A stretch of DNA of 64,000 nt from Pedobacter sp. MC2016-15 (GTDB lineage Bacteria; Bacteroidota; Bacteroidia; Sphingobacteriales; Sphingobacteriaceae), in NCBI RefSeq assembly GCF_026239695.1, contig NZ_JAPIVS010000008.1, positions 62,001 to 126,000 on the forward strand, written 5' to 3'. This document shows, piece after piece, positions 37,906 through 51,238 of this stretch. Within the stretch, counting starts at the first letter, position 1. Each line of letters opens with the position of its first letter. The position numbers were made by a program, and so were the translations under genes. The notes beneath the pieces were generated by a model. That model worked only from the letters and a program-made list of their open reading frames with translations, made no database searches and had not been told where the DNA came from.

Positions 37906-39189
37906 ATGAAAGAACATGAGAATAAGTTTCTTTACGGAATTGATTTTGGCACTACTAACTCTGCACTGTCAATTTACGACGACGAAAAAAAAGAAATCAT
38001 CAGCACCATTACGGTTCCTTCCCTTATTTACTTTCAGTACGAACAAGGAGGCGCGGACTCCCTTGGTTATGTGATCGGTGAACACGCAGTAACCTCTTAT
38101 CTTAAAGAGGGAATGAGAGGTCGTTTTATCAAATCTATCAAACAGATCCTCTCCAGAAGCAGTTTTATCGAAACAAGTATCCATAATAAAAGATATACGG
38201 CTTCTGATCTCGTTACGCTCATTCTCAAAGACCTAAAGGCAAAAGCAGATGAGATTATTGGATATGATTGCAAAAAAGCTATCATTGGCAGGCCAGTATT
38301 TTTTGACGATGATAGCACGGCGAAAGATACCCTTGCGCAAACACGGCTGAGCAAGGCTGCTGAAAATGCAGGTTTCTCGGAAGTACGTTTCCAATTTGAA
38401 CCCATCGGTGCCGCTTTTGCCTATGAAAGAACGATCAGTAAAAAGGAAAAGGTGCTGGTAGCCGATCTTGGTGGAGGTACCACAGACTTTACCTATCTGA
38501 CATTGGATCCCGAAAAGGCGGGGAACAAAGACAGAAAAGGTGATATGATTGCCAGCGGTGGTATCTACATCGGCGGTGATAGCTTTGATTCGGCATTTAT
38601 GTGGGATAGGGGAACACCGCATTTCGGCAAAAATACCCTTTATGAAGCCACACCAGGCAAGGTGCTGACCGTCCCAATTTCTCTGTTTGCCAATATCTGT
38701 ACATGGGACCAGATGAACTTTTTTAATAGCCTCCGGATTAAAAGAGATATGGAAGACTATTATCATTATTCCAAAAAAGATAAGAAATTCAAAAACTTGC
38801 TCACACTTATTGATCATAACCTGGGTTATTCTGTTTTCCAGTCTATCGAAAAGACTAAAATTGAACTTTCCGAACAGGAAAAATCACAGTTTTCCTATTC
38901 CAATATGGAAATAGAGATTGATGAAGAGATTTCTATTGCACAATATGAAGCGATCATTGAAAAGGATATCAGGAAGATTAGTATTTATTTGGATGAATTT
39001 ATGGTGAAGAATCATATCAAAGCAGAAGATATTGACAGTCTGTTTCTCACCGGCGGAACCTCGTTGGTTGCTTCGGTACAAAATCTTTTCCGTACCAGGT
39101 TTCCCCATGTTCCTGTAAATTCCGGGGATAACTTCACAAGCGTTGCCAGGGGGCTTGCCTTAAGTGGCTATTTGTTCGCAAATGAGTAA
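37906..39189 (+). CDS. Hsp70-like ATPase (YegD type), nucleotide-binding domain only
   Basis: The 427-residue protein has the Hsp70/actin-fold signatures: phosphate 1 YGIDFGTTNSALSIY, phosphate 2 LVADLGGGTTDFTYLTL and adenosine site LFLTGGTSLVASVQ. It ends there, without the substrate-binding beta domain and lid of DnaK, which matches YegD-like proteins. No co-chaperone gene is nearby. Its client and function are unknown. Confidence 0.9.
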   Translation: MKEHENKFLYGIDFGTTNSALSIYDDEKKEIISTITVPSLIYFQYEQGGADSLGYVIGEHAVTSYLKEGMRGRFIKSIKQILSRSSFIETSIHNKRYTASDLVTLILKDLKAKADEIIGYDCKKAIIGRPVFFDDDSTAKDTLAQTRLSKAAENAGFSEVRFQFEPIGAAFAYERTISKKEKVLVADLGGGTTDFTYLTLDPEKAGNKDRKGDMIASGGIYIGGDSFDSAFMWDRGTPHFGKNTLYEATPGKVLTVPISLFANICTWDQMNFFNSLRIKRDMEDYYHYSKKDKKFKNLLTLIDHNLGYSVFQSIEKTKIELSEQEKSQFSYSNMEIEIDEEISIAQYEAIIEKDIRKISIYLDEFMVKNHIKAEDIDSLFLTGGTSLVASVQNLFRTRFPHVPVNSGDNFTSVARGLALSGYLFANE

Positions 39190-39230
39190 TTATGTTGTAT
39201 TTTTATCGCTGATCCTGATAAGATTTTTAT

Positions 39231-40268
39231 ATGAAGAAGTTTTTTCCAGTTGCCGTTATTTACGCGCTCAGCCTGCTTTCTGTTTCTTACGCCCAGTCTC
39301 CCTGGATTAAATTAAAGGAAGAGCTGGTTTTCAATAACCCACCATTTAAGCAATGCCATGCTTCTACGATGGTGGAGATCGCTCCGGGAAAGGTTTTGCT
39401 GTCTTGTTTTGGCGGATCGGCCGAAGGAAAGAAAGATGTAGATATCTGGCTGTCATCAATTGATGATCAGGGTATCAGCAGTCCTCAGGATGTGGCCAAT
39501 GGAATTGTTAGTGATACTTTAAGGTTCCCTGCCTGGAACCCTGTCCTCTTCAAAAGCAATACCGGAAAGCTCTTCCTTTTTTACAAGGTTGGTCCTAATC
39601 CAAGAGAATGGTGGGGCATGCTTAAAACGTCTGATAACGACGGACAAAGCTGGTCGCCCGCCAGTCGCCTTCCTGAGGGAATACTGGGGCCGATAAAGAA
39701 TAAACCTGTGCAACTGGCCGATGGCACTATCTTATCTCCATCCAGTGTTGAAGTAAACGAAAACCGCTGGACAGCCCATATGGAGAAGTCGGCCGACGAT
39801 GGAAAGACCTGGAAGCTTATTCCGGTAGATCCAGATTCAAAATTTGATGTGATACAGCCCAGCGTACTCTTTTACGGAAAAAATAAGTTGCAGATCCTGT
39901 GCAGGAGCAAACAGGGCAGCGTGGTGCAGGCCTGGTCCGCCGATGGTGGCAACACCTGGGGCAAGCTTAGCAAAACATCGCTCTTAAACCCTAATTCAGG
40001 AACTGATGCAGTGACACTCAAAGATGGTACACAGCTGATTGTTTACAATCCTGATGTACCTGGCAAAGATTGGTTTAACGGTAGAGGCAAGCTGAGGGTT
40101 GCCAGTTCTAAAGATGGTAAAACATGGAAAGATGTGGTTGTCCTTGAAAATGGTACTAAAGAAGAATTTAGTTATCCGGCCATCATCCAGACCAGGGACG
40201 GACTGGTGCATATTACTTATACGTACGACAGGAAGAATGTCAAACATATCGTGCTCAAAAAAGGGTAA
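39231..40268 (+). CDS. secreted BNR/Asp-box (sialidase-like) protein
   Basis: The 345-residue protein has a signal peptide (YALSLLSVSYAQ) and several Asp-box-like turns (SDNDGQSWSPA, SADDGKTWKLI, SADGGNTWGKL, SKDGKTWKDV) of a six-bladed beta-propeller. The start CHASTMVEIAPGKVLLSCFGG and the FGGSAEGKKDVDIWLS strand fit the BNR_2 family, which contains sialidases and other glycan-active enzymes. I cannot verify a sialidase Arg triad, so the substrate stays open. Confidence 0.82.
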   Translation: MKKFFPVAVIYALSLLSVSYAQSPWIKLKEELVFNNPPFKQCHASTMVEIAPGKVLLSCFGGSAEGKKDVDIWLSSIDDQGISSPQDVANGIVSDTLRFPAWNPVLFKSNTGKLFLFYKVGPNPREWWGMLKTSDNDGQSWSPASRLPEGILGPIKNKPVQLADGTILSPSSVEVNENRWTAHMEKSADDGKTWKLIPVDPDSKFDVIQPSVLFYGKNKLQILCRSKQGSVVQAWSADGGNTWGKLSKTSLLNPNSGTDAVTLKDGTQLIVYNPDVPGKDWFNGRGKLRVASSKDGKTWKDVVVLENGTKEEFSYPAIIQTRDGLVHITYTYDRKNVKHIVLKKG

Positions 40269-40271
40269 TGA

Positions 40272-40279
40272 TATCTTTG
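40272..40279 (+). promoter_or_regulatory. candidate -7 box (TATCTTTG)
   Basis: TATCTTTG matches TAnnTTTG and lies 28 bases before the GTG start of the dehydrogenase at 40308, within the short gap after the BNR gene. The -33 TTG is missing. Confidence 0.45.
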
Positions 40280-40307
40280 AATCCCTAAATTTTAAAGAAT
40301 TATAGTT

Positions 40308-41129
40308 GTGAGAGCACTCGATTTTAATAACAAGTGGGTTTTAGTAACCGGAGCATCTTCTGGTCTGGGATATGAAATGGCTCAGCAGCTTGCCCATCAG
40401 CATCATGCTAACCTGATTATCGCTGCCAGGCGTGCTGATAAACTGCATCAGCTCAAAGCTGATCTGGAACACGATGCCAATGTTCAGGTTAAAGTAATTG
40501 TGGCAGACCTTTCGGTTCCTGAAGATGTGGAACGTCTTATCTCCGGGTGTTTAAATGGTCAGGAGCTTTATGCTGCAGTACTGAATGCCGGAATTACACA
40601 TTTCGGTCCTCATGCTGAGCTATCCCAACATGCTTTTGAACTGCTTGTTCAAACCAATGTGATCAGTGTGGTTCGTCTTACCGGAGAACTGGTTAAACAC
40701 TTTGAGCAGACAAGATCGGAGGGGGGCATCATGATAGTTTCCAGTATGGCCGGTATATTTCCCGTGCCTTATCAGGCGGCATATTCGGGTACAAAATCAT
40801 TCTTAATCGGCTTTGCCAATGCCCTTGCACATGAGATCCAGAGCCGGGTGCTATCTCTTACCATCTTCGCTCCGGGAGGAATTGTGACCGAAATGACGGC
40901 AACTGAGCAGTTCAACGATTTACAAAGTTGGCTTATGCCGGTACGCCAGGCAGCAAAAGAGGGGATATATGCACTAAAAACCAGGAAATTCAACTACGTA
41001 CCCGGCGCCATAAACAGAGTAGGCAATGTATTCATGAAGCTTCTGCCAAAAAAAATGATCATCAGCATCCTGGCAAAAACCTACCAGCGATCACTTTCAA
41101 AAGTAAATAAGAAGGGGAAAATTCAGTAA
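40308..41129 (+). CDS. short-chain dehydrogenase/reductase
   Basis: The gene starts with GTG at 40308. The 273-residue protein has the cofactor motif VLVTGASSGLGYEMA, NAGITHFG, catalytic SSMAGI serine and YSGTKSF (YxxxK). An RR after ASS-type loop (AARRADKL) suggests NADP use. A basic, slightly hydrophobic C-terminus (MKLLPKKMIISILAKTYQR) may be membrane-associated. Substrate unknown. Confidence 0.9.
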   Translation: MRALDFNNKWVLVTGASSGLGYEMAQQLAHQHHANLIIAARRADKLHQLKADLEHDANVQVKVIVADLSVPEDVERLISGCLNGQELYAAVLNAGITHFGPHAELSQHAFELLVQTNVISVVRLTGELVKHFEQTRSEGGIMIVSSMAGIFPVPYQAAYSGTKSFLIGFANALAHEIQSRVLSLTIFAPGGIVTEMTATEQFNDLQSWLMPVRQAAKEGIYALKTRKFNYVPGAINRVGNVFMKLLPKKMIISILAKTYQRSLSKVNKKGKIQ

Positions 41130-41147
41130 TATCCCCATATTTGGGCG

Positions 41148-41178
41148 TTGTACCTCCTGTTCATAAACCTCACCTTTG
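41148..41178 (+). promoter_or_regulatory. promoter of the YceI gene (TTG-N20-CACCTTTG)
   Basis: TTG at 41148-41150 and CACCTTTG at 41171-41178 are 20 bp apart and the ATG is 18 bases further. The first base of the -7 box deviates from TAnnTTTG. Confidence 0.45.
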
Positions 41179-41196
41179 ATTCAAAGACAAAGATTT

Positions 41197-41760
41197 ATGG
41201 CTACGTGGAAACTCGATACTGATCACAGTTCAGTGATGTTCAGTACAAAAGATTTAATGCTCACAACGATTACAGGATACTTCACAGCATATCAGGCAGA
41301 AGTACATACAAAGGGCGATGATATTACAGCAGATCCATTGGTAGATTTCAGTGCTGAAATCAATTCTATACATACCAATCAGCCCCAGCGTGATCAACAC
41401 CTGCTTTCTGCAGATTTTTTTGATGCCGCAAACTTTCCTCAGATCAGTTTCAAGGCAAGGTCTATGGAACAAATCAATATCATAAAAAATCCCTTTCCTA
41501 TTGGTCCTTATCAAAAAAGTTATGACCTGGAGGGCGATCTGACAGTCAGAGGTATTACAAAACCGGTTAGTTTTAGAGTAGAACATCAGGGTAAGATAAG
41601 CGATCAGCACAACCGTACTGTTGCCGGATTTACCCTCAGTGGGAAAATCTCCAGAACGGAGTTTGGCATGACATGGGGAGAGAAGACCGCTGCTGGAAAG
41701 GCAATAATAGGTGATGAAGTACGCATTCATTGCAGTCTGCAGTTTATCCTGTATATTTGA
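41197..41760 (+). CDS. YceI-family protein
   Basis: From the ATG at 41197 the protein has 187 residues. It shows the family start TWKLDTDHSSVMFSTKDLML, then DPLVDFSAEINSIHTNQPQR, HLLSADFFDAANFPQISF, DLTVRGITKPVSF and a GFTLSGKISRTEFGM strand. YceI proteins form a lipocalin-like barrel that binds isoprenoid or similar lipids. There is no signal peptide, so this copy is cytoplasmic. Confidence 0.93.
   Translation: MATWKLDTDHSSVMFSTKDLMLTTITGYFTAYQAEVHTKGDDITADPLVDFSAEINSIHTNQPQRDQHLLSADFFDAANFPQISFKARSMEQINIIKNPFPIGPYQKSYDLEGDLTVRGITKPVSFRVEHQGKISDQHNRTVAGFTLSGKISRTEFGMTWGEKTAAGKAIIGDEVRIHCSLQFILYI
41730..41759 (+). promoter_or_regulatory. promoter TTG-N19-TATATTTG inside the end of the YceI gene
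   Basis: TTG at 41730-41732 and TATATTTG at 41752-41759 have the ideal 19 bp spacing of Bacteroidota vegetative promoters. The next ATG is at 41767, so the following gene can be transcribed separately with a very short leader. Confidence 0.55.
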
Positions 41761-41766
41761 CCCATT

Positions 41767-42084
41767 ATGGGTTACGCAAAAGAAAGAGGAAAGCTTGAGA
41801 ATATATTAACCAGGCTTGTAGGTGTCAATATTTACAATGAAAAAAGTCTGGGCATTCTTCATGATTGCCATGAGAAATATTCACATACGGTGAGAATATT
41901 GAAGAATAAGCAGCCTGAGATCTTTATTGAGCTATACAATAATGAATTGCAGGAAGTAAAAGAAGGGAAGAAAGCTGTCAGGGAAGATGACGCTATCGAA
42001 GACCGTCAGAATAACTTTCTTGCTTATAAAGATGCGATTATTCGTGCCACAGAAAAAACGATTCAAGCAACCCTTGAGGCTTAG
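41767..42084 (+). CDS. hypothetical helical protein, 105 residues
   Basis: The protein is charged and helical (GYAKERGKLENILTRLVGVN, HTVRILKNKQPEIFIELYNN, EKTIQATLEA). No domain recognised. It lies six bases after the YceI stop with its own promoter candidate, and a hairpin terminator follows. Confidence 0.65.
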   Translation: MGYAKERGKLENILTRLVGVNIYNEKSLGILHDCHEKYSHTVRILKNKQPEIFIELYNNELQEVKEGKKAVREDDAIEDRQNNFLAYKDAIIRATEKTIQATLEA

Positions 42085-42089
42085 TCAAT

Positions 42090-42114
42090 AACAGGAAATT
42101 CTGGGTTTCCTGTT
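42090..42114. terminator. bidirectional hairpin terminator
   Basis: AACAGGAAA (42090-42098) pairs with TTTCCTGTT (42106-42114) around TTCTGGG, followed by TTATATTTT. It ends the hypothetical gene on the plus strand and touches the stop of the glycosyltransferase on the minus strand. Confidence 0.7.
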
Positions 42115-43343
42115 TATATTTTCTTCACATTAAATTTCCTCTTAGGGCCGCAATAGTTCAGACAGGATTCTTCCAGTTTAAGTACTCCACGTTTTACGAG
42201 CGTAAAATCTGTTACCCAGCTGTTGATCAATGCTGTGCGTACCGCCGAGCCAATGCTGGTGGTGGCGGATGTAGTTAGTGACCCGGGATGTGACCTTCTG
42301 ATATACAGGAACTCGTCGATGTTTTGTATAGTATCCAGTTTGAAGTAGCAGTAATACAGGAATTTTGTGTCATTTGCAAAAATCCGATCCTCTGAGAGTT
42401 TCTGGCAGGCATAGAAAATTCCCCGTGCAACTGCCGATGAAGGATGTAACAAGGCATGTGCAGGTCCGTTCTTCAAAGCGCTGACCACATCTTTTGGATA
42501 ACGCACAGCCTGTACAGTTCTTTTAAAATAATCCATTTTGATTTCATGAGAGCCGCAAAGCGGGATACTATGATTATTCATGTAGGTGGAAAGTCGTTCA
42601 AACCTGTCTGCACATGAGATATCATCAGAATCCTGGAAAAACAGGATATCAGCATCTCCCTGATCTGCCAGCCAGTTTCGGATAATATATGGGCCCACTG
42701 GATTTGGACTAAAGGCATAATAGGAAATATAAGGATACTGATTTTTAATCGTCATTAGCTCTTTGAACATGGGCTGATCAGCACCCAAGTATACATTGAT
42801 ATTTTCTGTGTCAGCCAAAAACTTCAGTAAATCTTTGAGATATGCCAGGTTTCCCCGGTGCGGAATCACCACATCACAGTGGTTTGAGGATGAAACCTCA
42901 GTGATCCCTGTTGGCAACTGCCGTACCAGCACCCTGTTTATTGCTGTATTACCCAGAGTATCCAATAGTTCAAAGAGCAGATTGCCCTTACGAATTATAC
43001 CAGAGTTCTGTCTTCTGATCAGCTCACGGAAATGGACAAAGGTACAACTGAATGAATAGATATATTCATCCATGCTTACCTGATACTGTGGTGCCGCCTT
43101 TCTTTGAGTCAGCAGAATAAATGTATGTAGTTGTTGTTCATAAATAGCCTCCAGCGATTTCCTCAGTTCATCCATATCGGGCTGAAAAATATCAAGAGGC
43201 GGATCAAATTTCAGGCATATGATATAATCAAAATCCTGGTCGAGAAATTCAAAACTCAAAAACATCATTTCATAATGCATCACCAGTCCTTTCTTTTTCC
43301 AGGCTATAAAATGATAATGTGTATAATCATTGATAAGTCTCAT
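42114..43343 (-). CDS. glycosyltransferase with GT-A (family 2-like) domain
   Basis: The 409-residue protein has an unknown N-terminal part (1-150) and a GT-A domain (about 155-345): HCDVVIPHRGNLAYLKDLLK, NINVYLGADQP, then ADILFFQDSDDISCADRFER with the metal-binding DSDD at 238-241, and FANDTKFLYYCYF. It has no signal or membrane helix. It would transfer a nucleotide-activated sugar to an unknown acceptor. It is second in a minus-strand pair with an ATP-grasp gene. Divergent neighbours encode a Cys-rich peptide and its apparent maturation proteins, so a peptide acceptor as in glycocins is possible but unproven. Confidence 0.8.
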   Translation of the reverse strand: MRLINDYTHYHFIAWKKKGLVMHYEMMFLSFEFLDQDFDYIICLKFDPPLDIFQPDMDELRKSLEAIYEQQLHTFILLTQRKAAPQYQVSMDEYIYSFSCTFVHFRELIRRQNSGIIRKGNLLFELLDTLGNTAINRVLVRQLPTGITEVSSSNHCDVVIPHRGNLAYLKDLLKFLADTENINVYLGADQPMFKELMTIKNQYPYISYYAFSPNPVGPYIIRNWLADQGDADILFFQDSDDISCADRFERLSTYMNNHSIPLCGSHEIKMDYFKRTVQAVRYPKDVVSALKNGPAHALLHPSSAVARGIFYACQKLSEDRIFANDTKFLYYCYFKLDTIQNIDEFLYIRRSHPGSLTTSATTSIGSAVRTALINSWVTDFTLVKRGVLKLEESCLNYCGPKRKFNVKKI

Positions 43344-43379
43344 AGTTGCTTGGTTTAGGGGTTGATAAACGTCTATGAG

Positions 43380-44624
43380 TCAGAGCATCAGACAGGGCTC
43401 TTCTCTGATGAGCTCAGATGCTTTCTGAAGGCAAGCCTGCTTCCTCCCATTTTCCTCCAGCTTTAGCACATGAGCGTATTCGTCTGCTGGAAATAACATA
43501 TGTTCTGTCAGGTGTCTGATCTGATTTCCCCTGAACATCTTTTCCGCATCGGGCTGTAGTTCTTTTGGAGAAATGATATAATATAGGTGTGCAAATTGTG
43601 CAACCTGCATATAACTGATCAGTTTAATCATTAAAAAATCTGTTTTTTCACCCAGGTAGATATATAAAGCTGCTACAGTTCCTTTTCCCTGCTGAAGTGC
43701 CAGGATGTGATTTTCTTTGAATATAGAAAGGTAGTAGGAGAGCTCTTCCATATATGGAGCCTTTGTGACCAGATTATGGTCGACAGTGGTGATAGCCAGG
43801 TCATATTTATTTTTAAAGTATGCATTCAGCAATGCACAGAGGATGGGACCACAAAAGCTCTCCTCAAAGTATCCGCTGGTCTGAAAGCCTGCATGGTACT
43901 GTGGATGAAATCCGGTAAAATTGGCCTCTATGACATAGTATTTTCCTCTGTGAGTAAGGGCAATGTCCCATCCGATCAAAGTACCTTCTAAAAGCGATGC
44001 GGGCAATTTTTCCAGCATCAGCTCAACAAACTCTTGTGTGCCATCAAAATCCCCCTTTTCTGCCTGTCCGCTAATCATCAGCGTCATGCCATACAGCACA
44101 TCCTGACCAAAGCTATGTACCCTGAACTCCTTTTTCAGCTTTAGTTTTTTCTGTATGATCCATTTCTCATTGCCTGCTGATTGCTCTTCATGCTCATTCA
44201 GAATATGCTCAATTTCTGAGGTCCTGTCAAAGCTTTTAGTCCTGCCTGAGCCAAAACCGAGGGTTGCTTTGATAAAAAAACCTGAGCCTATGAGTTTCCT
44301 GATCCTAGGCACCCATTGGTCTTGTTTCAGCATTCGGCTCAGCCCCAGGGTTAGTGGCATGCAGCCCGGAACATAATGACTGAACAAGAGATATTGCACA
44401 AATTTATTTTCAGGCCGCCATTTGAAGATATGGTGTTCATCAATCTTTAATTGTCGCAACATTGCTCTCACAGTAAATGCGCCCAGCCATCCCGATAAGT
44501 TTGATAACAGCACCGGGTCGCTATTAAGTTTGAAGCTTTTTATCACTCTTCTCCTTGGCGCCCTCACAACCGCCTTGTCTATATCACGTAACAATTCTTT
44601 CAAATCATCATCTTTCTGCGTCAT
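43380..44624 (-). CDS. ATP-grasp-type protein
   Basis: The 414-residue protein contains ATP-grasp hallmarks: GFFIKATLGFGSGRTKS (K119, glycine-rich loop), WIIQKKLKLKKEFRVHSFG, GWDIALTHRGKYYVIEANFT with E233 and N235 as the likely metal ligands. N-terminal lines such as NKFVQYLLFSHYVPG recall sugar-transfer-associated ATP-grasp proteins. The family ligates a carboxylate to an amine or thiol with ATP. The C-terminal 150 residues are unknown. It is first in a unit with the glycosyltransferase, 36 bases apart, and is divergent from the peptide-maturation genes. Substrate not known. Confidence 0.72.
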   Translation of the reverse strand: MTQKDDDLKELLRDIDKAVVRAPRRRVIKSFKLNSDPVLLSNLSGWLGAFTVRAMLRQLKIDEHHIFKWRPENKFVQYLLFSHYVPGCMPLTLGLSRMLKQDQWVPRIRKLIGSGFFIKATLGFGSGRTKSFDRTSEIEHILNEHEEQSAGNEKWIIQKKLKLKKEFRVHSFGQDVLYGMTLMISGQAEKGDFDGTQEFVELMLEKLPASLLEGTLIGWDIALTHRGKYYVIEANFTGFHPQYHAGFQTSGYFEESFCGPILCALLNAYFKNKYDLAITTVDHNLVTKAPYMEELSYYLSIFKENHILALQQGKGTVAALYIYLGEKTDFLMIKLISYMQVAQFAHLYYIISPKELQPDAEKMFRGNQIRHLTEHMLFPADEYAHVLKLEENGRKQACLQKASELIREEPCLML

Positions 44625-44826
44625 TTTCCTATGGATTTATACTTGCCCGATCTTCAATTTACTTACAATAGCTGGCTGATCAGAACTCATAAGCAACAAA
44701 AGTCCGGAGCCTGTTTTTATTGGGTAATCTGTCACTTTAACCAGCTTCTATATTTTGTAAATTCAATAGAATTCCCTTTCCATAGCCCCCGTGAAAAGGG
44801 AGATGGCAATTCTAAAATCTTTAAAA
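44625..44826. promoter_or_regulatory. divergent control region of the two halves of the peptide locus
   Basis: This 200 bp gap separates the ATP-grasp/glycosyltransferase unit (-) from the C39-like/VKOR/thioredoxin unit (+). It must hold both promoters. Alternative upstream starts for the plus gene exist at 44791 (GTG) and 44803 (ATG). I see no clear operator and no precursor-like ORF. Confidence 0.4.
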
Positions 44827-46410
44827 ATGAACCTTCTCAACAAAAAGAAAAGCAATATCCTATCTGTAACCTACCAGTTACTACGCGAGATAAATGTGAA
44901 TGTGAATCCGGAGACCCTGTTAAAAAAAATGGAATCGCACCCGGAATATCCTGGTTTACTGACTATTTGCGACTGCCTTAAAATTTTTAAAGTGGACAAT
45001 CATGTTTACCGTATAGAAAGGGAGAATTACAATCACCTGGATCTGCCCTTTCCATTTATCTCACATACCTCAAAGGAAGGCGGCTCCTTTTTTCTGGTCC
45101 ACGGACTAAAGAATGGCTCTTTCAGGATTTCTGATGAAAAAATAAGAAATGCAAGCGTCAGAAAGGAAGACTTTTTTGCTTCATGGGAGGGCTTGGTCCT
45201 GTATGCTAAATCCAATGGAGAAAGTGGAGAACCGGGTTACCTGCAGCATTATATCCAATTCTCGCTTCATAGAATTGCTGCTCCGGCTTTTCTCACCCTG
45301 CTCGTAACCATGTTTATCGTCATATTCCGGCTTCATCCTTTTAGTCTGGCTATCCTGGCTTTATGTATAATTAAACTTTCCGGTGCTGTAATCAGCATGC
45401 TGCTCATCGCGCAGGGATTCAGCAGTAGTCCTTCATGGGTAAAAAATGTCTGTGGCAAACACGGAAAAAACGATTGCAATGCGCTTCTTCAAACGCGCGC
45501 TGCACATATTACGCCCTGGTTCAGCTGGGCAGAGGCAGGATTGTTCTATTTTTCAGGAACCTTTCTCAACATACTTCTTCTTCCATCCCTGGCCCCGTTG
45601 CTGTTCTGGATAAATGTTTTTGCCCTGCCATACATGGTGTACTCACTGGTGTATCAATACAGGATAAAAAAATGGTGTATCCTCTGTTGTAGTGTACAGG
45701 CATTGCTACTACTGGAGTATGTTTCATTTAATTTCATCCCCGGCCGCTTCGAGATGGGTGCCCTCAGTTCGTTTAACCTGTTAGTCCCTTCTATTTTATG
45801 TTTCCTCTTCCCGGTAGTTACCTGGGGAATGATCAAACCACTGCTTCAGGAAAATTCCATGCTAAAAACTACGGGCTGGCAACTCAAACAATTCAAGTAC
45901 AACAGCGAATTGTTTACACTGGGACTGATGAACCAGCAGCACTATGAGGCGGGCGATGAGCTTAAACCCATTGTACTCGGAAATCCGAATGCTGAAATTG
46001 TCATCACTCTTGTCAGTAACCCCTATTGCAGCCCCTGTACTGAAGTCCATCACTTCTTTGACCAGTGGATGCGGGAGCGTGACGACCTACAGTTGAAAAT
46101 TCTGATGCTCGCCAGTGGCGATACAATGCAAATCAGGACTGCCGAACATATGATCGCACTGGGTTTATTAAAAGATAAAAAGCTGATTGCCCAGTCTTTG
46201 AATCATTGGTATAATCAGTGTGATAAGGTATATGATCAATGGCAGAAAAAGTATCCTGTGCTGATCACAGAAAATATAAGAACTACCTTCCGGAAGCAGC
46301 AGCAATGGTGCGAGAACGCGGGAATCAACTTTACTCCGGCCATTTTAATAAACGGTCATCTCCTTCCAGAGCCTTATGAGGTCGAAGACCTGAAATATCT
46401 GATCAGTTAA
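44827..46410 (+). CDS. C39-like / vitamin K epoxide reductase / thioredoxin fusion membrane protein
   Basis: From the ATG at 44827 the protein has 527 residues. Residues 1-130 resemble a C39 peptidase domain without the catalytic Cys and His. Residues 145-335 are a VKOR domain with about five membrane helices, the loop pair C209/C217 (NVCGKHGKNDC) and the active site WCILCC (C284/C287). Residues 380-527 are a thioredoxin-fold domain with CSPC (401-404) and cis-proline FTPAIL. VKOR-thioredoxin fusions pass electrons from substrate thiols to quinone and so form disulfides. The degenerate C39 part could hold the leader of the peptide encoded downstream. The next gene starts five bases later. Confidence 0.87.
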   Translation: MNLLNKKKSNILSVTYQLLREINVNVNPETLLKKMESHPEYPGLLTICDCLKIFKVDNHVYRIERENYNHLDLPFPFISHTSKEGGSFFLVHGLKNGSFRISDEKIRNASVRKEDFFASWEGLVLYAKSNGESGEPGYLQHYIQFSLHRIAAPAFLTLLVTMFIVIFRLHPFSLAILALCIIKLSGAVISMLLIAQGFSSSPSWVKNVCGKHGKNDCNALLQTRAAHITPWFSWAEAGLFYFSGTFLNILLLPSLAPLLFWINVFALPYMVYSLVYQYRIKKWCILCCSVQALLLLEYVSFNFIPGRFEMGALSSFNLLVPSILCFLFPVVTWGMIKPLLQENSMLKTTGWQLKQFKYNSELFTLGLMNQQHYEAGDELKPIVLGNPNAEIVITLVSNPYCSPCTEVHHFFDQWMRERDDLQLKILMLASGDTMQIRTAEHMIALGLLKDKKLIAQSLNHWYNQCDKVYDQWQKKYPVLITENIRTTFRKQQQWCENAGINFTPAILINGHLLPEPYEVEDLKYLIS

Positions 46411-46415
46411 AGCTG

Positions 46416-46847
46416 TTGCTATTGAAATATTTTCCCTTCTATTACCAGTCTTACCCCATGGATTGCGGACCAACATGCCTCAGGATGATTGCTGCCTGTT
46501 TCGGTAAAAGTTTTGATCCTGCAATGCTGAAGCACATGTCCAGGATCAGCGTTGAAGGTTCCTCTATGCTGGACCTTATGAACGCTGCCGGCAAACTGCA
46601 GCTCTCCTCTAGAGGCTTTGAGGTTACTACTGCACAGCTATCTGAGACAGTTTTACCAGCCATTCTCCATTGGGACCAGCAACATTTTGTGGTGTTGTTC
46701 AAAATCAAAAAACAAACGTATTATATTGCAGACCCTGCTATCGGTGTCATCAAATTTTGTCGTTCCGCTTTTTTAAAGCACTGGCAGAATCCTGGAAGTA
46801 TTCACCCTGCGACAGGCTTTATCCTTACTTTCTCTCTGAAGGTCTGA
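46416..46847 (+). CDS. stand-alone C39 leader peptidase
   Basis: The start is TTG at 46416 or 46422; the first ATG lies inside the conserved Cys box. The 143-residue protein has a complete C39 site: Q11 and C17 in YYQSYPMDCGPTCLRM, H90 in WDQQHFVVLF and D106 in YYIADPAIG. In typical exporters this domain is fused to an ABC transporter and cuts after GG in bacteriocin leaders. Here it stops at residue 143 and no membrane or ATPase part follows. It sits right before the GG-leader peptide gene, the likely substrate. Confidence 0.88.
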   Translation: MLLKYFPFYYQSYPMDCGPTCLRMIAACFGKSFDPAMLKHMSRISVEGSSMLDLMNAAGKLQLSSRGFEVTTAQLSETVLPAILHWDQQHFVVLFKIKKQTYYIADPAIGVIKFCRSAFLKHWQNPGSIHPATGFILTFSLKV

Positions 46848-46976
46848 GGCAAATTTATGGGTAATATGACATCTGATACACTCTGAATAATTCATAGTTT
46901 TATGGATAGAATTTAACTACTTATGCATAAGCTATCGTGCACAATTTTTATAGAGTATTGATTTAAATATGATATT

Positions 46977-47192
46977 ATGGAAGCGTATGAAATTACTTTA
47001 GGGACTATTCTAAGTAGGAAAGAACTCAGGGCAATTAGAGGTGGCGGTTCCGTTACTCCTCCAGGTACTCCAACCGGAGGAAATATTGGTCCTTTTAAAT
47101 GTTGTATTACAGGGACGAATACCTGTAGCCAGTGTGTAACCTGTACTCCAAGTTGTACCTGTGGTCCGGGAGCAACACTTGTAGCCTGTTAA
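46977..47192 (+). CDS. Cys-rich peptide with double-glycine leader, putative natural-product precursor
   Basis: The 71-residue peptide has a leader ITLGTILSRKELRAIRGG, with G22-G23 as the expected C39 cut site, close to the Bacteroidota natural-product leader LSxxELxxIxGG. The 48-residue core begins GSVTPPGTPTGGNIGPFK and then has eight cysteines (CC, C, C, C, C, C, C). Four disulfides are possible. A second GG (34-35) is an alternative cut. The adjacent peptidase and thiol oxidase fit maturation to an exported disulfide peptide. Ser/Thr/Cys residues could accept a sugar. Activity is unknown. Confidence 0.78.
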   Translation: MEAYEITLGTILSRKELRAIRGGGSVTPPGTPTGGNIGPFKCCITGTNTCSQCVTCTPSCTCGPGATLVAC

Positions 47193-47225
47193 GGTGATCT
47201 TCCGATGTAAAGTTATCCTACAAAG

Positions 47226-47259
47226 GCAGGCATTAATTGAAGATATGCCTGCTTTTTTT
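47226..47259 (+). terminator. intrinsic terminator of the peptide locus
   Basis: GCAGGCAT (47226-47233) pairs with ATGCCTGC (47245-47252), followed by seven T. It lies 34 bp after the peptide stop and ends the unit. Confidence 0.85.
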
Positions 47260-47360
47260 ATGCCGGATTAGCATCCAGGCATTGGATACCTGAGCAGGAA
47301 ATCTTATCTTACAGCACAGGAGCTTGAAGATAAGATTTATCCCACCCAATCAGAATCATA

Positions 47361-48125
47361 ATGTTGAAGAAATTTGCCGCTACTATCATTTTAGGACTAT
47401 CTTTTATTGGCAGCCATGCACAGACCACCAGACTGATCGTCAGGGCCCAGGCCAAAGACGCAAAGTTCATTGGTACAGGAATCGGAGGAGCCTTTGTGAC
47501 CGTCCGGGATCACCTTACCGGCGAAATCCTTGCTAAAGGTCTCACTGCCGGCACTTCGGGAAATACGGATCTCATGATGAAAGGAAAAGTAAGGAGGGGA
47601 CTTCCCGTTATTGATACGACTACCGCTAAGTTCGAAGCTAACATTCCGCTTTCTGAGCCAACATTTGTCGATGTTGAGGCTGTGGCACCGCTTACCAGAA
47701 GAAATGCCGCTGTTAAATCCACTACGCAGATATGGCTGATACCGGGTAAAGATATCCTCGGTGAAGGGATCCTGTTGGAATTTCCAGGTTTTATCCTCGA
47801 TGTATTATCGCCTACCACTCATGAGTTCATTAAACTGGAGGAGCTAAAGGGGAATCTGAAATTTAAGGCCAGCCTGACAATGATGTGCGGCTGCACGATC
47901 ACCAAAGGCGGCATCTGGGATGCGGATGGAATTGAAGTTAAGGCAATTGTGAAGAAAGAAGGTCTGCGGATTACAGAAGTTCCAATGAAGATTAGCCCGG
48001 TAGCAAATATTTTTGAAGGTAATCTGAAAATGGAAACAAAAGGAAATTATGAACTGACGATCTATGCTTATGATGCCAGGACCGGCAATACGGGTCTTGA
48101 TAAAATCAACTTTGTGATCCAGTAA
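47361..48125 (+). CDS. secreted protein of unknown function
   Basis: The 254-residue protein has a signal peptide (AATIILGLSFIGSHAQ) and a beta-rich mature part (GAFVTVRDHLTGEILAKGLT, KFKASLTMMCGCTITKGGIW, NYELTIYAYDARTGNTGL). The C-terminal 90 residues resemble an Ig-like or bacterial Big-type fold; I recognise no enzyme motif. It follows the terminator of the peptide locus, so it is probably a separate unit. Confidence 0.75.
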   Translation: MLKKFAATIILGLSFIGSHAQTTRLIVRAQAKDAKFIGTGIGGAFVTVRDHLTGEILAKGLTAGTSGNTDLMMKGKVRRGLPVIDTTTAKFEANIPLSEPTFVDVEAVAPLTRRNAAVKSTTQIWLIPGKDILGEGILLEFPGFILDVLSPTTHEFIKLEELKGNLKFKASLTMMCGCTITKGGIWDADGIEVKAIVKKEGLRITEVPMKISPVANIFEGNLKMETKGNYELTIYAYDARTGNTGLDKINFVIQ

Positions 48126-48168
48126 TCTGCTGGCTGGAACACAAAGTTTATTTATTTAATGGTACTTC

Positions 48169-49077
48169 TTAAACCTGGTAGTTAATATACCTTTCCTCAA
48201 AGCTGCCGTCAGCATAAAGATCTAACAGTCCGTAACCAGGTGCAGTTTCCCGGCGGTTGCCCTTCCACCATGCTCCACTTACCGCACCGTCGCAGATGTA
48301 GGTGACATTGTTATACACCACTTTATCACGCATATGTATATGCCCGCTCAGGCACAGCTTTACATTGGGATGCTGATAAAACAGTTTGATAATTTTCGAG
48401 GTATCTGTATGCATATCGCCACCCAGCATTGTCCATTTGTTGACGATATCATCTTCAATCATCAGCGTGGCCGTTAATATAGGAATGTGTGATAGAATCA
48501 GTACAGGAGTGTTTGGATCAGTAGCTTCAAGTTCCTTTTTCAGCCATTCAAACTGCTCATCACCCAGCTTACCGATATACCAGGTTTGATCGATATCCAG
48601 GTGCACACTGTCCAGCACGATAAATTTCCATCCACCCTGCTGAAAAGTATAATAAGGTTTCTGCAGCTGAAGCTGGTTCAGCGAATATTCTTTGCCATAG
48701 AAAGTATGCCCTTTACTGTTCTCATTCCACCAAATGTCATGGTTTCCCAGGCAATATTTTACAGGAATGCTGCATTCTGATTTGATAATATCATGTGTAA
48801 GTTTCCACTGATCATTGATGGTGCTCAGGTTCTCCTTGTTCATATCAAAAACCACATCACCACCGTTCAGGATCAGGTCAACTTTGGGAGATTGCTGCTG
48901 AACATGGTGCAGGCATTTTACGTAATGCCCCGGAGCACCAAGGTCATTTTTCAGGTGCACATCCGTCAGGTGGGCAATGCGTAGTACAGGTTTTGTTGCT
49001 GCAAATAAACTGCCGGTTGGCAGGGCTGTGCTCAGCGCTAATCCGCCAATGCTTTTGAGTACGGTTCTTCTATTCAT
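48169..49077 (-). CDS. exported calcineurin-like metallophosphoesterase
   Basis: The 302-residue protein has a Tat-like leader (NRRTVLKSIGGLALSTALP). All metal motifs are present: IAHLTDVHL, LNGGDVVFD, CLGNHDIWW, ILSHIPILT and LSGHIHMRD. It hydrolyses phosphoesters with a two-metal centre; the substrate is unknown. It is monocistronic and convergent with the secreted-protein gene. Confidence 0.93.
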   Translation of the reverse strand: MNRRTVLKSIGGLALSTALPTGSLFAATKPVLRIAHLTDVHLKNDLGAPGHYVKCLHHVQQQSPKVDLILNGGDVVFDMNKENLSTINDQWKLTHDIIKSECSIPVKYCLGNHDIWWNENSKGHTFYGKEYSLNQLQLQKPYYTFQQGGWKFIVLDSVHLDIDQTWYIGKLGDEQFEWLKKELEATDPNTPVLILSHIPILTATLMIEDDIVNKWTMLGGDMHTDTSKIIKLFYQHPNVKLCLSGHIHMRDKVVYNNVTYICDGAVSGAWWKGNRRETAPGYGLLDLYADGSFEERYINYQV

Positions 49078-49323
49078 CAGAATATAATTACATCATGTGC
49101 CAGCAAAATTATAGAGATTAATCATGAGAATGCAGGCAAGTATGTTAACAAAATATTAATTAGTTAAACAGGAAAGCCCGGGCGGAATATGAATAAAAAT
49201 TCATTAAGCCATTTAGTTATAATGATCTTTTTAAAAGATAAGATCAGGCATCAGACGAGGCATTGAACGTTACAACAAAGTTATTATGACCTTCACAACA
49301 AAGTATCAACTGTCTAGTCTGTA

Positions 49324-49331
49324 TACCTTTG
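49324..49331 (+). promoter_or_regulatory. -7 box (TACCTTTG)
   Basis: TACCTTTG fits TAnnTTTG, 23 bases before the ATG at 49355. No TTG at the ideal distance. Confidence 0.45.
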
Positions 49332-49354
49332 ATTCATACTAAAATGTAATAAAT

Positions 49355-50188
49355 ATGAAAAAGGTATGGTTTATCACAGGAAGTTCCAGCGGACTTGGAA
49401 GAACCCTGACAGAGGCAGCTTTAGCAGCAGGCAATATAGTAGCTGCTACAGCGCGTAACCCCAAAAATAATGATGATCTTGCTCAGCGCTATCCTGAACA
49501 GCTTTACGCTATTCAGCTTGATGTAACTTCAGCAGCGCAGATCCAAAAAGCAGTTAAAGATGTAATTGCACGTTTCGGCAGGATCGATGTGCTGGTCAAC
49601 AATGCCGGCTTCGCTGTGGCAGGTGCGGCAGAGGCATTTACAGAAGCCGAGGTACGTGAACAGTTCGAAGTCAACCTATTGACACCGGTGGAAATCTGCA
49701 GAGCGATATTGCCTTATATGAGAAAGGCAGGGTCTGGCAGAATCCTCAACATCAGCTCAGTGGGAGGGAGGGCGGCCAGTGCAGGCATCTCCATCTATCA
49801 AAGTGCTAAGTTTGGTCTCGGCGGTTTCAGTGAAGCCCTTGCCAATGAAACTGCAGAGCTTGGCATCAGGGTTACCTCTGTTGAGCCGGGTGGCATGCCT
49901 ACCAATTGGGCAGGATCTTCGATGTCCTTTGCTACTTCAGTTGAAGGTTATGAAAACACAGTAGACACCCGTATAGCGGCCTTAAAAAACAATGAGTTTA
50001 AAGCAGGAAGTGAGCTGAGCAAAGTGGCATCTGTAATCCTGCACCTTGCAGACCACCCGGAACCGCCCCTGCATCTGGTTTTGGGCAGCGATGCACTCGC
50101 ACATCTGGAAAATGTAGATAAGATCAGACAAGAGCAGCAGCAAATATGGCTGAATGTTTCTACATCCACGGATGTGTTAAATTCCTGA
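49355..50188 (+). CDS. short-chain dehydrogenase/reductase
   Basis: The 277-residue protein shows FITGSSSGLGRTLTEAAL, ARNPKNN after the second strand, VLVNNAGFAVAGAA, a NISSVGG serine and YQSAKFG (YxxxK), ending VLGSDALAHLE. Classical SDR; substrate unknown. It is followed by a GC-rich terminator and then by an AraC gene on the same strand that may regulate it. Confidence 0.92.
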   Translation: MKKVWFITGSSSGLGRTLTEAALAAGNIVAATARNPKNNDDLAQRYPEQLYAIQLDVTSAAQIQKAVKDVIARFGRIDVLVNNAGFAVAGAAEAFTEAEVREQFEVNLLTPVEICRAILPYMRKAGSGRILNISSVGGRAASAGISIYQSAKFGLGGFSEALANETAELGIRVTSVEPGGMPTNWAGSSMSFATSVEGYENTVDTRIAALKNNEFKAGSELSKVASVILHLADHPEPPLHLVLGSDALAHLENVDKIRQEQQQIWLNVSTSTDVLNS

Positions 50189-50196
50189 AGAATAAC

Positions 50197-50219
50197 CGCC
50201 CGGTGCCATAAGCCGGGCG
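50197..50219 (+). terminator. GC-rich hairpin terminator
   Basis: CGCCCGG (50197-50203) pairs with CCGGGCG (50213-50219) around a 9-base loop, nine bases after the SDR stop, followed by TAATTTG. Confidence 0.65.
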
Positions 50220-50260
50220 TAATTTGATATCTTTACTTCAACCAATACTACAGCCGAATC

Positions 50261-51106
50261 ATGGATAGCCCAATACATCATCATTACAATCAGATCACGT
50301 ATTCATGTTATTCTGATCGCTCCAGAGCAGGAGAAACGTTTGTTGCCGATCATGTTTTCAGCTTTCAGATCAGTGGAACAGTGGAACTAAAAAATGATGT
50401 CTCTATCGATGTTTTTACGGCCGGCAGTTTCAGGCTGACTACCAGAAACCAACTGATCAAATTCTATAAAGAGCCTGGCGAAGACGGTGAATATAAAAAC
50501 ATATCTGTGGTTTTCGATCAGAAAACTCTTAGAGAGATAAGTGAGGAGTTTGGTTATGCCGCTCAAAAACTCAGTGAGGCTCAAGTCGTAGTTCCTCTGC
50601 CTGGCCACAAACTACTGATCAGTTATGTTCAATCCCTACAACCCTATGATGATTTATTAAGGGAAGAAAATTTTAGTTTACGCGCGCTTAAAATTAAAGA
50701 GCTGATCCTTCTGCTGCTCAGAATAAAACCAGATCTGGCACACATATTATTCGACTTTTCTGAGCCAGGTAAAATCGATCTGGAAAAGTTTATGAACCTG
50801 AATTTTCATTTCAACGTTCCTCTGGAGCGATTTGCTTACCTGACCGGGCGCAGCTTATCTACTTTTAAAAGGGATTTTGAGAAGGTGTTTCTTGTCCGCC
50901 CCGGTAAGTGGTTAAAGGAAAAGCGTTTGAAAGAAGCGTATTACCTGATCAGGGAAAAAGGTGCCTTACCCTCCAAAATTTATGCTGAGGTAGGTTTTGA
51001 AGACCTTTCACATTTTTCTTTTGCCTTCAAAAAGATGTTTGGTGTTGGCCCATCACGTGCCGCAGAAATACAGAATATCAGAAAAGATTTCAAACAGGAT
51101 CAATAG
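50261..51106 (+). CDS. AraC-family transcriptional regulator
   Basis: The 281-residue protein has an N-terminal cupin-like sensor part (VADHVFSFQISGTVEL, DVFTAGSFRLTTRN) and a C-terminal pair of HTH motifs (PLERFAYLTGRSLSTFKRDF and KIYAEVGFEDLSHFSFAFKK). The closing FGVGPSRA is the AraC signature. The nearest likely target is the dehydrogenase gene directly upstream. Effector unknown. Confidence 0.92.
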   Translation: MDSPIHHHYNQITYSCYSDRSRAGETFVADHVFSFQISGTVELKNDVSIDVFTAGSFRLTTRNQLIKFYKEPGEDGEYKNISVVFDQKTLREISEEFGYAAQKLSEAQVVVPLPGHKLLISYVQSLQPYDDLLREENFSLRALKIKELILLLLRIKPDLAHILFDFSEPGKIDLEKFMNLNFHFNVPLERFAYLTGRSLSTFKRDFEKVFLVRPGKWLKEKRLKEAYYLIREKGALPSKIYAEVGFEDLSHFSFAFKKMFGVGPSRAAEIQNIRKDFKQDQ

Positions 51107-51238
51107 GTTTGTAATTACAGTGTCTACTTTCATCAGCAGGGCTGAAATTCGCGACTGCTGCTTGTGAATTACACTCATGGGTGTTACCAAATTGAACGTC
51201 AACCCAAATTATTTCCTACTTTGGTAAAAAATTGACAT

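What the first reader, a model, noticed from the sequence alone, without database searches (positions are those of the whole stretch)
42114..47192. Candidate glycocin-like disulfide-peptide locus with a split C39 peptidase and a VKOR-thioredoxin oxidase
Seen: an eight-Cys GG-leader peptide, a complete stand-alone C39 peptidase, a C39-like/VKOR/thioredoxin fusion, and a divergent ATP-grasp plus GT-A pair within 5.1 kb, closed by terminators on both sides. Known: glycocins (sublancin type) need a GT2 enzyme, thiol oxidoreductases and a C39 exporter. Inference: the parts make one pathway in which a Cys-rich peptide is oxidised, cut and possibly sugar-modified. Not matching glycocins: no ABC exporter, ATP-grasp added, two strands.
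Basis: partly seen in the sequence, partly recalled or inferred. Interest (0 to 1): 0.82.

Follow-up and report, generated by a model that had tools for sequence, protein, structure and literature searches.

The report
Disulfide-peptide locus with ligase-glycosyltransferase pair
A Pedobacter gene cluster makes a small cysteine-rich peptide with its own leader-cutting protease and disulfide-making enzyme; in six related loci of this kind the usual export pump is missing from the neighbourhood and an uncharacterised ligase, in five of them with a sugar-transferase, sits opposite, which points to a new way of finishing such peptides.

Summary
Five genes lie at 42114-47192: a GT-A glycosyltransferase, an ATP-grasp protein (GRASP), a C39-like/VKOR/thioredoxin fusion, a lone C39 protease with its catalytic residues, and a 71-aa double-glycine peptide with eight core cysteines. 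The set recurs in five Pedobacter genomes (87% identical peptide in P. westerhofensis, dN/dS about 0.05). In 145 Pedobacter genomes the lone C39 occurs six times, always beside GRASP; every other listed C39 but two short, possibly truncated frames lies in an exporter-sized ORF. The lone C39s form one clade. The VKOR partner belongs to two distant lineages, so it joined the unit twice. All 12 GT genes lie beside GRASP, and all 12 pairs lie beside a precursor-like gene of one of four kinds (the 'precursor' call is mine for the Gly-rich kind). This supports one tailoring pathway, not chance neighbours. It is not a glycocin: no peptide S-glycosyltransferase match, no local exporter, different cysteine pattern. 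The closest known relatives are bacteroidetocin-type disulfide peptides. A second inference: in 57 fusion proteins the charge pattern puts the oxidase's active cysteines in the cytoplasm, beside a leader-binding-like domain. Sugar, ligase substrate, export and activity are untested.

The parts
42114..43343 (-). GT: 409-aa glycosyltransferase without signal peptide, GT-A type with FFQDSDD (DxD type) motif, about 150 aa N-terminal region of unknown kind
   Evidence: PF00535 in 6 of 7 members, best 9e-5; PDB profile hits heparosan synthase B and TarS-like GTs, E 5e-5 to 2e-4; D238-D241 invariant; 12 of 12 close homologues in Pedobacter lie beside GRASP
43380..44624 (-). GRASP: 414-aa ATP-grasp ligase near the R2K clade, with an extra C-terminal domain
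   Evidence: 13 of 14 members hit R2K_2, best 1.2e-5; model pLDDT 80, pTM 0.81, matches to ArgX/LysX, RimK, TTL, Ddl, PurK; invariant K119, E166xR168, D220, E233xN235
44625..44826 (.). intergenic region between the divergent GRASP-GT and VKOR-C39-peptide units, presumed promoters
   Evidence: direct reading; same divergent layout in L014, L015, L026, L038 and L032
44827..46410 (+). C39-like (no catalytic Cys) - VKOR - thioredoxin fusion, 527 aa from ATG 44827 (ORF opens at GTG 44791); 6 predicted TM helices; redox Cys C209/C217, C284/C287 and C401/C404 (numbered from 44827)
   Evidence: Pfam; those six Cys invariant in 57 distinct homologues, charge bias
46416..46847 (+). stand-alone C39 double-glycine protease, 143 aa, no transporter domains
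   Evidence: PF03412 2.5e-31; matches PCAT1/LahT protease domains; clade of lone C39s 99/97
46977..47192 (+). 71-aa precursor peptide: 23-aa leader ending RGG, 48-aa core with 8 Cys
   Evidence: 87% identical in P. westerhofensis, dN 0.079, dS 1.45
47222..47259 (+). terminator after the peptide gene
   Evidence: -16.4 kcal/mol, z -4.25, then a T run
42090..42114 (.). hairpin between the 105-aa gene and the GT 3' end
   Evidence: T-rich tail on the + strand only

Best explanation
The locus makes and finishes a disulfide-rich ribosomal peptide. The 71-aa precursor carries a double-glycine leader. Its leader is held by the C39-like domain of the membrane fusion protein, whose VKOR and thioredoxin domains oxidise the eight core cysteines to up to four disulfides, passing electrons to quinone. 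The lone C39 protease then cuts after the double glycine; in related loci elsewhere this cut is made by an export pump, which is absent here. The ATP-grasp enzyme and the glycosyltransferase, made from the opposite strand, then act on the peptide: most likely the ligase joins a carboxylate to an amine of the peptide (for example the new N-terminus) and the glycosyltransferase adds a sugar to the peptide or to the joined group. Shown: gene content, intact catalytic residues (except the inactive C39-like domain), conserved linkage, one origin of the lone C39, two recruitments of the VKOR fusion. Inferred from family knowledge: disulfide formation and the leader cut. Inferred with less support: that GRASP and GT act on this peptide, the order of steps, and release (perhaps by the orphan HlyD/C39-exporter elsewhere in the genome).
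For: Five-gene set in five Pedobacter genomes with very different core peptides. Lone C39: 6 in 145 genomes, 6 of 6 beside GRASP; all other listed C39 hits but two (255 and 279 aa, perhaps truncated) lie in frames of 636 aa or more. Lone C39s are one clade among Pedobacter exporter C39s, while the VKOR fusions of the same loci fall in two distant lineages, one of whose nearest relatives (G443) has an exporter next to it. GT is never found without GRASP among its 12 close homologues. Every GT-GRASP pair lies next to a precursor-like gene: 5 double-glycine peptides, one 93-aa Cys-rich peptide, one grasp-with-spasm RiPP cassette (TIGR04192/TIGR04193), five Gly-rich ILFG proteins. ATP-grasp residues typical of peptide/amide ligases are all kept (PMC4431377). 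The peptide is the most conserved of the five genes between the two closest genomes.
Against: GRASP-GT pairs also sit beside unrelated precursors, and nine intact GRASPs have no such GT, so GRASP may do something not specific to this peptide. GRASP and GT are on the other strand. No exporter is present, so how the product leaves the cell is unexplained. Calling the Gly-rich proteins precursors is my reading after the fact. No expression or chemistry data.
Confidence: 0.5

Rival explanations
1. GRASP and GT protect the producer: they modify the cell's own envelope or another target so that the peptide does not harm it.
For: No separate immunity gene is apparent in the shared five-gene set; GT profile hits include teichoic acid and capsule enzymes; the GRASP family also sits with GT10/GT2 genes away from peptides (L028).
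Against: The same pair faces a grasp-with-spasm cassette and Gly-rich proteins; one envelope change would have to protect against very different products.
Confidence: 0.2
2. The VKOR/lone-C39/peptide unit and the GRASP-GT unit are neighbours without a shared function, kept together by descent or by a shared insertion site.
For: Divergent strands; a 105-aa gene lies within about 6 kb of GRASP in several loci of different GRASP types, which hints at an old common site; GRASP occurs alone too.
Against: 6 of 6 lone C39s beside GRASP and two independent VKOR recruitments; rough binomial for 5 of 20 GRASPs beside a VKOR fusion 7e-10 (assumes independence, which shared descent breaks).
Confidence: 0.12
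3. The locus is a reduced bacteroidetocin-type system that lost its exporter and depends on an exporter encoded elsewhere; GRASP-GT is a minor add-on.
For: VKOR fusion + GG peptides + C39-exporter is the usual Pedobacter layout; the own genome has one orphan HlyD + C39-exporter.
Against: The lone C39 is intact and old enough to form one clade in six loci, so this is a stable state and not decay; exporter recognition would normally need the leader that the lone C39 removes.
Confidence: 0.13
4. A true glycocin: S- or O-glycosylated peptide made by a SunS-type enzyme.
For: GT, oxidase, C39 and a Cys-rich GG peptide together.
Against: No NCBIfam or PDB match of the GT to peptide S-glycosyltransferases; 8-9 Cys instead of 4-5; no local exporter; ATP-grasp added.
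Confidence: 0.03

Closest known systems
Bacteroidetocins (class IIf peptides of Bacteroidetes, PMC6671954)
   Same: Double-glycine leader, 42-48 aa Cys-containing core, dedicated thiol oxidoreductase gene
   Different: Bacteroidetocins have a C39-exporter and a five-TM protein and at least 2 Cys (4 in A and B); here a lone C39 replaces the exporter, the oxidase is a C39-like/VKOR/thioredoxin fusion, and GRASP-GT is present
VKOR-fusion + C39-exporter + GG-peptide loci of Pedobacter and other Bacteroidia (no description found in the papers searched)
   Same: Same oxidase family, same kind of leader and Cys-rich cores
   Different: No lone C39, no GRASP, no GT; exporter present
Glycocins (sublancin type)
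   Same: GT-A enzyme, thiol oxidation, C39 cut
   Different: GT not related at detectable level to SunS-type; Cys pattern; exporter; ATP-grasp
Graspetides / grasp-with-spasm RiPPs (PMC8939145)
   Same: ATP-grasp enzyme beside a GG-type precursor; one GRASP-GT pair even faces a grasp-with-spasm cassette
   Different: GRASP is a separate, R2K-like family, not MvdC/MvdD-like; core has hardly any Asp/Glu for lactone or lactam rings
R2K clade of ATP-grasp enzymes (CDC123, R2K_2, R2K_3; PMC4431377)
   Same: Sub-threshold profile similarity, Lys, ExR, Asp and ExN residues
   Different: Second R2K lysine not conserved; extra C-terminal domain; GT partner
Inverted VKOR used for cytoplasmic disulfides (Hatahet and Ruddock 2013, cited in PMC5471842)
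   Same: Predicted active cysteines on the cytoplasmic side
   Different: Fused to a C39-like domain and thioredoxin; natural partner of leader peptides

Membership tests
Glycocin | Peptide S/O-glycosyltransferase of the SunS/ThuS/GccA type | tested here: not met
   No such family among NCBIfam hits up to E 1 for seven members; PDB profile hits are heparosan synthase and TarS-like enzymes
Glycocin | Small helical core with two nested disulfides (4 Cys, with or without one glycosylated Cys) | tested here: not met
   8-9 Cys (6 in L032) in 32-48 aa cores; the glycocin pattern itself is from general knowledge
Glycocin | C39-ABC exporter in the cluster | tested here: not met
   Only one exporter-type C39 in the genome, on another contig
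Glycocin | Sugar on the mature peptide | not testable with these tools
   Needs mass spectrometry
Bacteroidetocin | GG leader with Cys-containing core of about 42 aa | tested here: met
   48-aa core, 8 Cys
Bacteroidetocin | C39-ABC transporter and five-TM protein in the region | tested here: not met
   No exporter in 42114-47192 and no separate TM protein gene there
Graspetide | ATP-grasp of MvdC/MvdD/GRASP_w_spasm type | tested here: not met
   No NCBIfam hit for the window GRASP up to E 0.1; Pfam R2K_2 instead
Graspetide | Core rich in Asp/Glu with Thr/Ser/Lys acceptors | tested here: not met
   0 Asp/Glu in the window core
ATP-grasp peptide/amide ligase superfamily | ATP-grasp fold | tested here: met
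   Foldseek E 3e-5, VIA Z 8-9 to many ATP-grasp chains over residues 27-315
ATP-grasp peptide/amide ligase superfamily | Lys, ExR, Asp, ExN residues | tested here: met
   K119, E166/R168, D220, E233/N235 invariant in 14 sequences
R2K clade | Two conserved lysines in the RAGNYA domain | tested here: inconclusive
   K119 invariant; position of the second Lys varies; profile hits below Pfam cut-off
VKOR family | Loop Cys pair plus CxxC in a TM bundle | tested here: met
   C209/C217 and C284/C287 in 57 of 57; PF07884 above cut-off
Inverted VKOR | Active site on the cytoplasmic side | tested here: inconclusive
   Two TMs before the Cys loop and K/R excess on the Cys side (about 11 to 0.7 per sequence); a classical VKOR-thioredoxin of the same class has one TM there and the opposite bias, but two small VKORs do not separate cleanly; AF2 model of the fusion poor
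C39 peptidase | Gln, Cys, His, Asp catalytic set | tested here: met
   Q11, C17, H90, D106 in six of six lone C39s; no such Cys in the fusion's domain

The most novel reading that the evidence does not exclude
Two linked novelties. First, the C39-like/VKOR/thioredoxin fusion, found in 69 of 145 Pedobacter genomes and in other Bacteroidia, is a leader-guided oxidase whose active cysteines face the cytoplasm: it would make disulfides in the precursor before the leader is cut and the peptide exported. Second, the GRASP-GT pair is a new ribosomal-peptide tailoring module, used with at least four unrelated kinds of precursor, which together with a lone C39 replaces the exporter in this subtype.
Probability: 0.3. 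Interest if true: 0.78.

Novelty: new variant of a known kind. Interest (0 to 1): 0.6.

Why it matters
Disulfide-rich ribosomal peptides are generally thought to be oxidised outside the cytoplasm, during or after export. A leader-binding, cytoplasm-facing oxidase would reverse that order and could be tested at once. The GRASP-GT pair, shared by unrelated precursors in one genus, would be a portable ligase-plus-glycosyltransferase module for ribosomal peptides, of which no description turned up in the papers searched.

Tried and rejected
Scan of genome contigs with the fusion protein alone: no relatives confirmed; replaced by the alignment-based scan. The downstream 254-aa secreted protein (47361-48125) was considered as part of the system and rejected: 21 of 145 genomes have it, only two beside GRASP. 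Glycocin, graspetide and bacteroidetocin membership rejected on the tests listed. AlphaFold of the fusion was too poor for topology or domain arrangement. No PDB sequence relative of GRASP. No Rfam match in 38000-52000. A Bacteroidetes-type promoter search failed for a pattern rule and was not repeated. The lone-C39 counts rest on the best-ranked matches; weaker ones are not listed by the tool. Structure libraries: the C-terminal part of GRASP (about 276-414) was barely tested.
Full report
The five genes. The finding's genes are all there. On the minus strand lie GT (42114-43343, 409 aa) and GRASP (43380-44624, 414 aa); on the plus strand the C39-like/VKOR/thioredoxin fusion (44827-46410), a lone C39 protease (46416-46847) and a 71-aa double-glycine peptide (46977-47192). 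The peptide has the hydrophobic positions -4, -7 and -12 that C39 proteases read (positions from PMC10885120; checked), and eight cysteines in a 48-aa core. No such ORF appears in 100 shuffles of the window. Between the window and P. westerhofensis it is 87% identical with dN 0.079 and dS 1.45, more conserved than its four partner genes. A strong terminator follows it.

Where it comes from. The window's genome is 5.1 Mb. Named relatives that carry GRASP are Pedobacter species and one Sphingobacteriales MAG, so the window is from Pedobacter or very near it (inference); I call the tool's 'same genus' genomes Pedobacter below.

How tightly the parts are linked. GRASP occurs in 12 of 145 genomes of the genus, about 20 intact copies, and in no other genome of a 395-genome class sample. 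The VKOR fusion is far commoner: 69 of 145 and about two dozen of 395 in the class. Usually it lies with GG-leader Cys peptides and a C39-exporter of about 730 aa. In five loci it lies beside GRASP and GT: the window, P. westerhofensis, P. cryoconitis S3M1, P. cryoconitis DSM 14825 and Pedobacter sp. L105. In those five, and in a sixth locus of L105 without fusion or GT, a lone C39 of 140-165 aa replaces the exporter. The genus-wide C39 search lists exactly these six lone copies; the other listed matches lie in frames of 636 aa or more, apart from two frames of 255 and 279 aa. The lone C39s form one clade with 99/97 support. The VKOR fusions of the same loci do not: the window, P. westerhofensis and L105 fusions group in one part of the tree, and the two P. 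cryoconitis fusions in a distant part, next to G443, where the fusion is followed by an exporter-size C39 protein. Gene order differs in the same way (fusion-C39-peptide versus C39-fusion-peptide). So the fusion came to the lone-C39/GRASP/GT unit twice, which is hard to explain if the parts do not work together.

What GRASP and GT are. GRASP folds as an ATP-grasp enzyme (AlphaFold pLDDT 80, pTM 0.81); ArgX/LysX, RimK, tubulin-tyrosine ligase, Ddl and PurK score alike (Z 8-9), so the fold does not name the substrate. Thirteen of 14 members hit Pfam R2K_2, the window protein below its cut-off. Lys119, E166xR168, D220 and E233xN235 are invariant, the set that marks peptide/amide ligases (PMC4431377). 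GT is a family 2 type GT-A enzyme with an invariant DSDD motif and weak likeness to mycofactocin MftF, heparosan synthase and TarS-like enzymes. Its 12 close homologues in the genus all lie beside GRASP. The 12 pairs lie beside four kinds of precursor-like gene: GG Cys peptides (5), a 93-aa Cys-rich peptide without GG (L027), a grasp-with-spasm cassette (L018; TIGR04192 1e-98 and TIGR04193 6e-101), and Gly-rich proteins that share an ILFGxI start (L020, L022, L023, L152, L154). Calling the last kind precursors is my own reading.

The oxidase. In 57 distinct fusions the redox cysteines C209, C217, C284, C287, C401 and C404 never vary. Two TM helices precede the Cys loop, so the C39-like domain, both Cys pairs and the thioredoxin should lie on one side. 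Lys+Arg counts per sequence are about 11 on that side and 0.7 on the other, which by the positive-inside rule means the cytoplasm. A classical VKOR-thioredoxin of the same class (L181) has one TM before the loop and the opposite bias; two small VKORs (L179, L203) do not separate cleanly. The AlphaFold model of the fusion was poor. A C39-like domain that reads the leader would also have to be where the uncut precursor is. I hold this as likely but unproven.

Most likely working. Precursor bound by its leader, oxidised by the fusion, cut by the lone C39, then modified by GRASP and GT. Shown are the anatomy, residues and linkage; disulfides and the cut follow from family knowledge; the acts of GRASP and GT, the order, and the way out of the cell are inference. 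The genome holds one orphan HlyD plus C39-exporter that could serve release.

Comparison with the known. Bacteroidetocins (PMC6671954) share leader, cysteines and an oxidase gene but use an exporter and a five-TM protein. Glycocins fail three tested features. Graspetides fail on enzyme family and core composition. Inverted VKORs are known from Hatahet and Ruddock 2013 (cited in PMC5471842). I found no paper on the C39-like/VKOR fusion or on the GRASP-GT pair, but the library holds only open-licence papers.

Verdict. A real, conserved variant of Bacteroidota disulfide-peptide systems, with a ligase-glycosyltransferase pair whose chemistry is worth testing. Interest 0.6.

Noticed in passing
L020:9433-10032, L022:9473-10096, L023:12021-12641, L152:7152-7661, L154:7109-7621: Five Gly-rich 169-207 aa proteins with a shared N-terminal ILFGxIxxP motif followed by a Gly run, each beside a GRASP-GT pair; no Pfam or NCBIfam match for the one tested.
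   Followed up: partly
L024:8041-8418 (own genome contig C1): Remnant of a third GRASP gene in the window's own genome (125-aa ORF; a stop lies in the matched frame).
   Followed up: no
window 41767-42084: A 105-aa gene lies within about 6 kb of GRASP in several loci of different GRASP types; it may mark an old common chromosomal site.
   Followed up: partly
window 47299-47338: 17-nt inverted repeat (hairpin z -4.8) just before the 254-aa secreted protein gene; function unknown.
   Followed up: no
L028:4814-8933: In P. steynii a lone GRASP neighbours four small glycosyltransferase-like genes in a row (one tested: family 2) and a family-10 (fucosyltransferase-like) one; a frameshifted GRASP of a MAG (L037) also lies near a similar family-10-like ORF.
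   Followed up: partly
L015:12352-13449 and L026:5036-6127: In both P. cryoconitis loci a secreted thioredoxin-fold (TlpA-like) protein follows the peptide gene; absent from the window.
   Followed up: no
L019:7279-7566: 95-aa protein with a cystatin-like QVVAG motif divergent from a lone GRASP.
   Followed up: no
L179 and L203: Small stand-alone four-TM VKOR proteins (133-141 aa) in Bacteroidia with K/R-rich Cys loops, possibly also inward facing.
   Followed up: no
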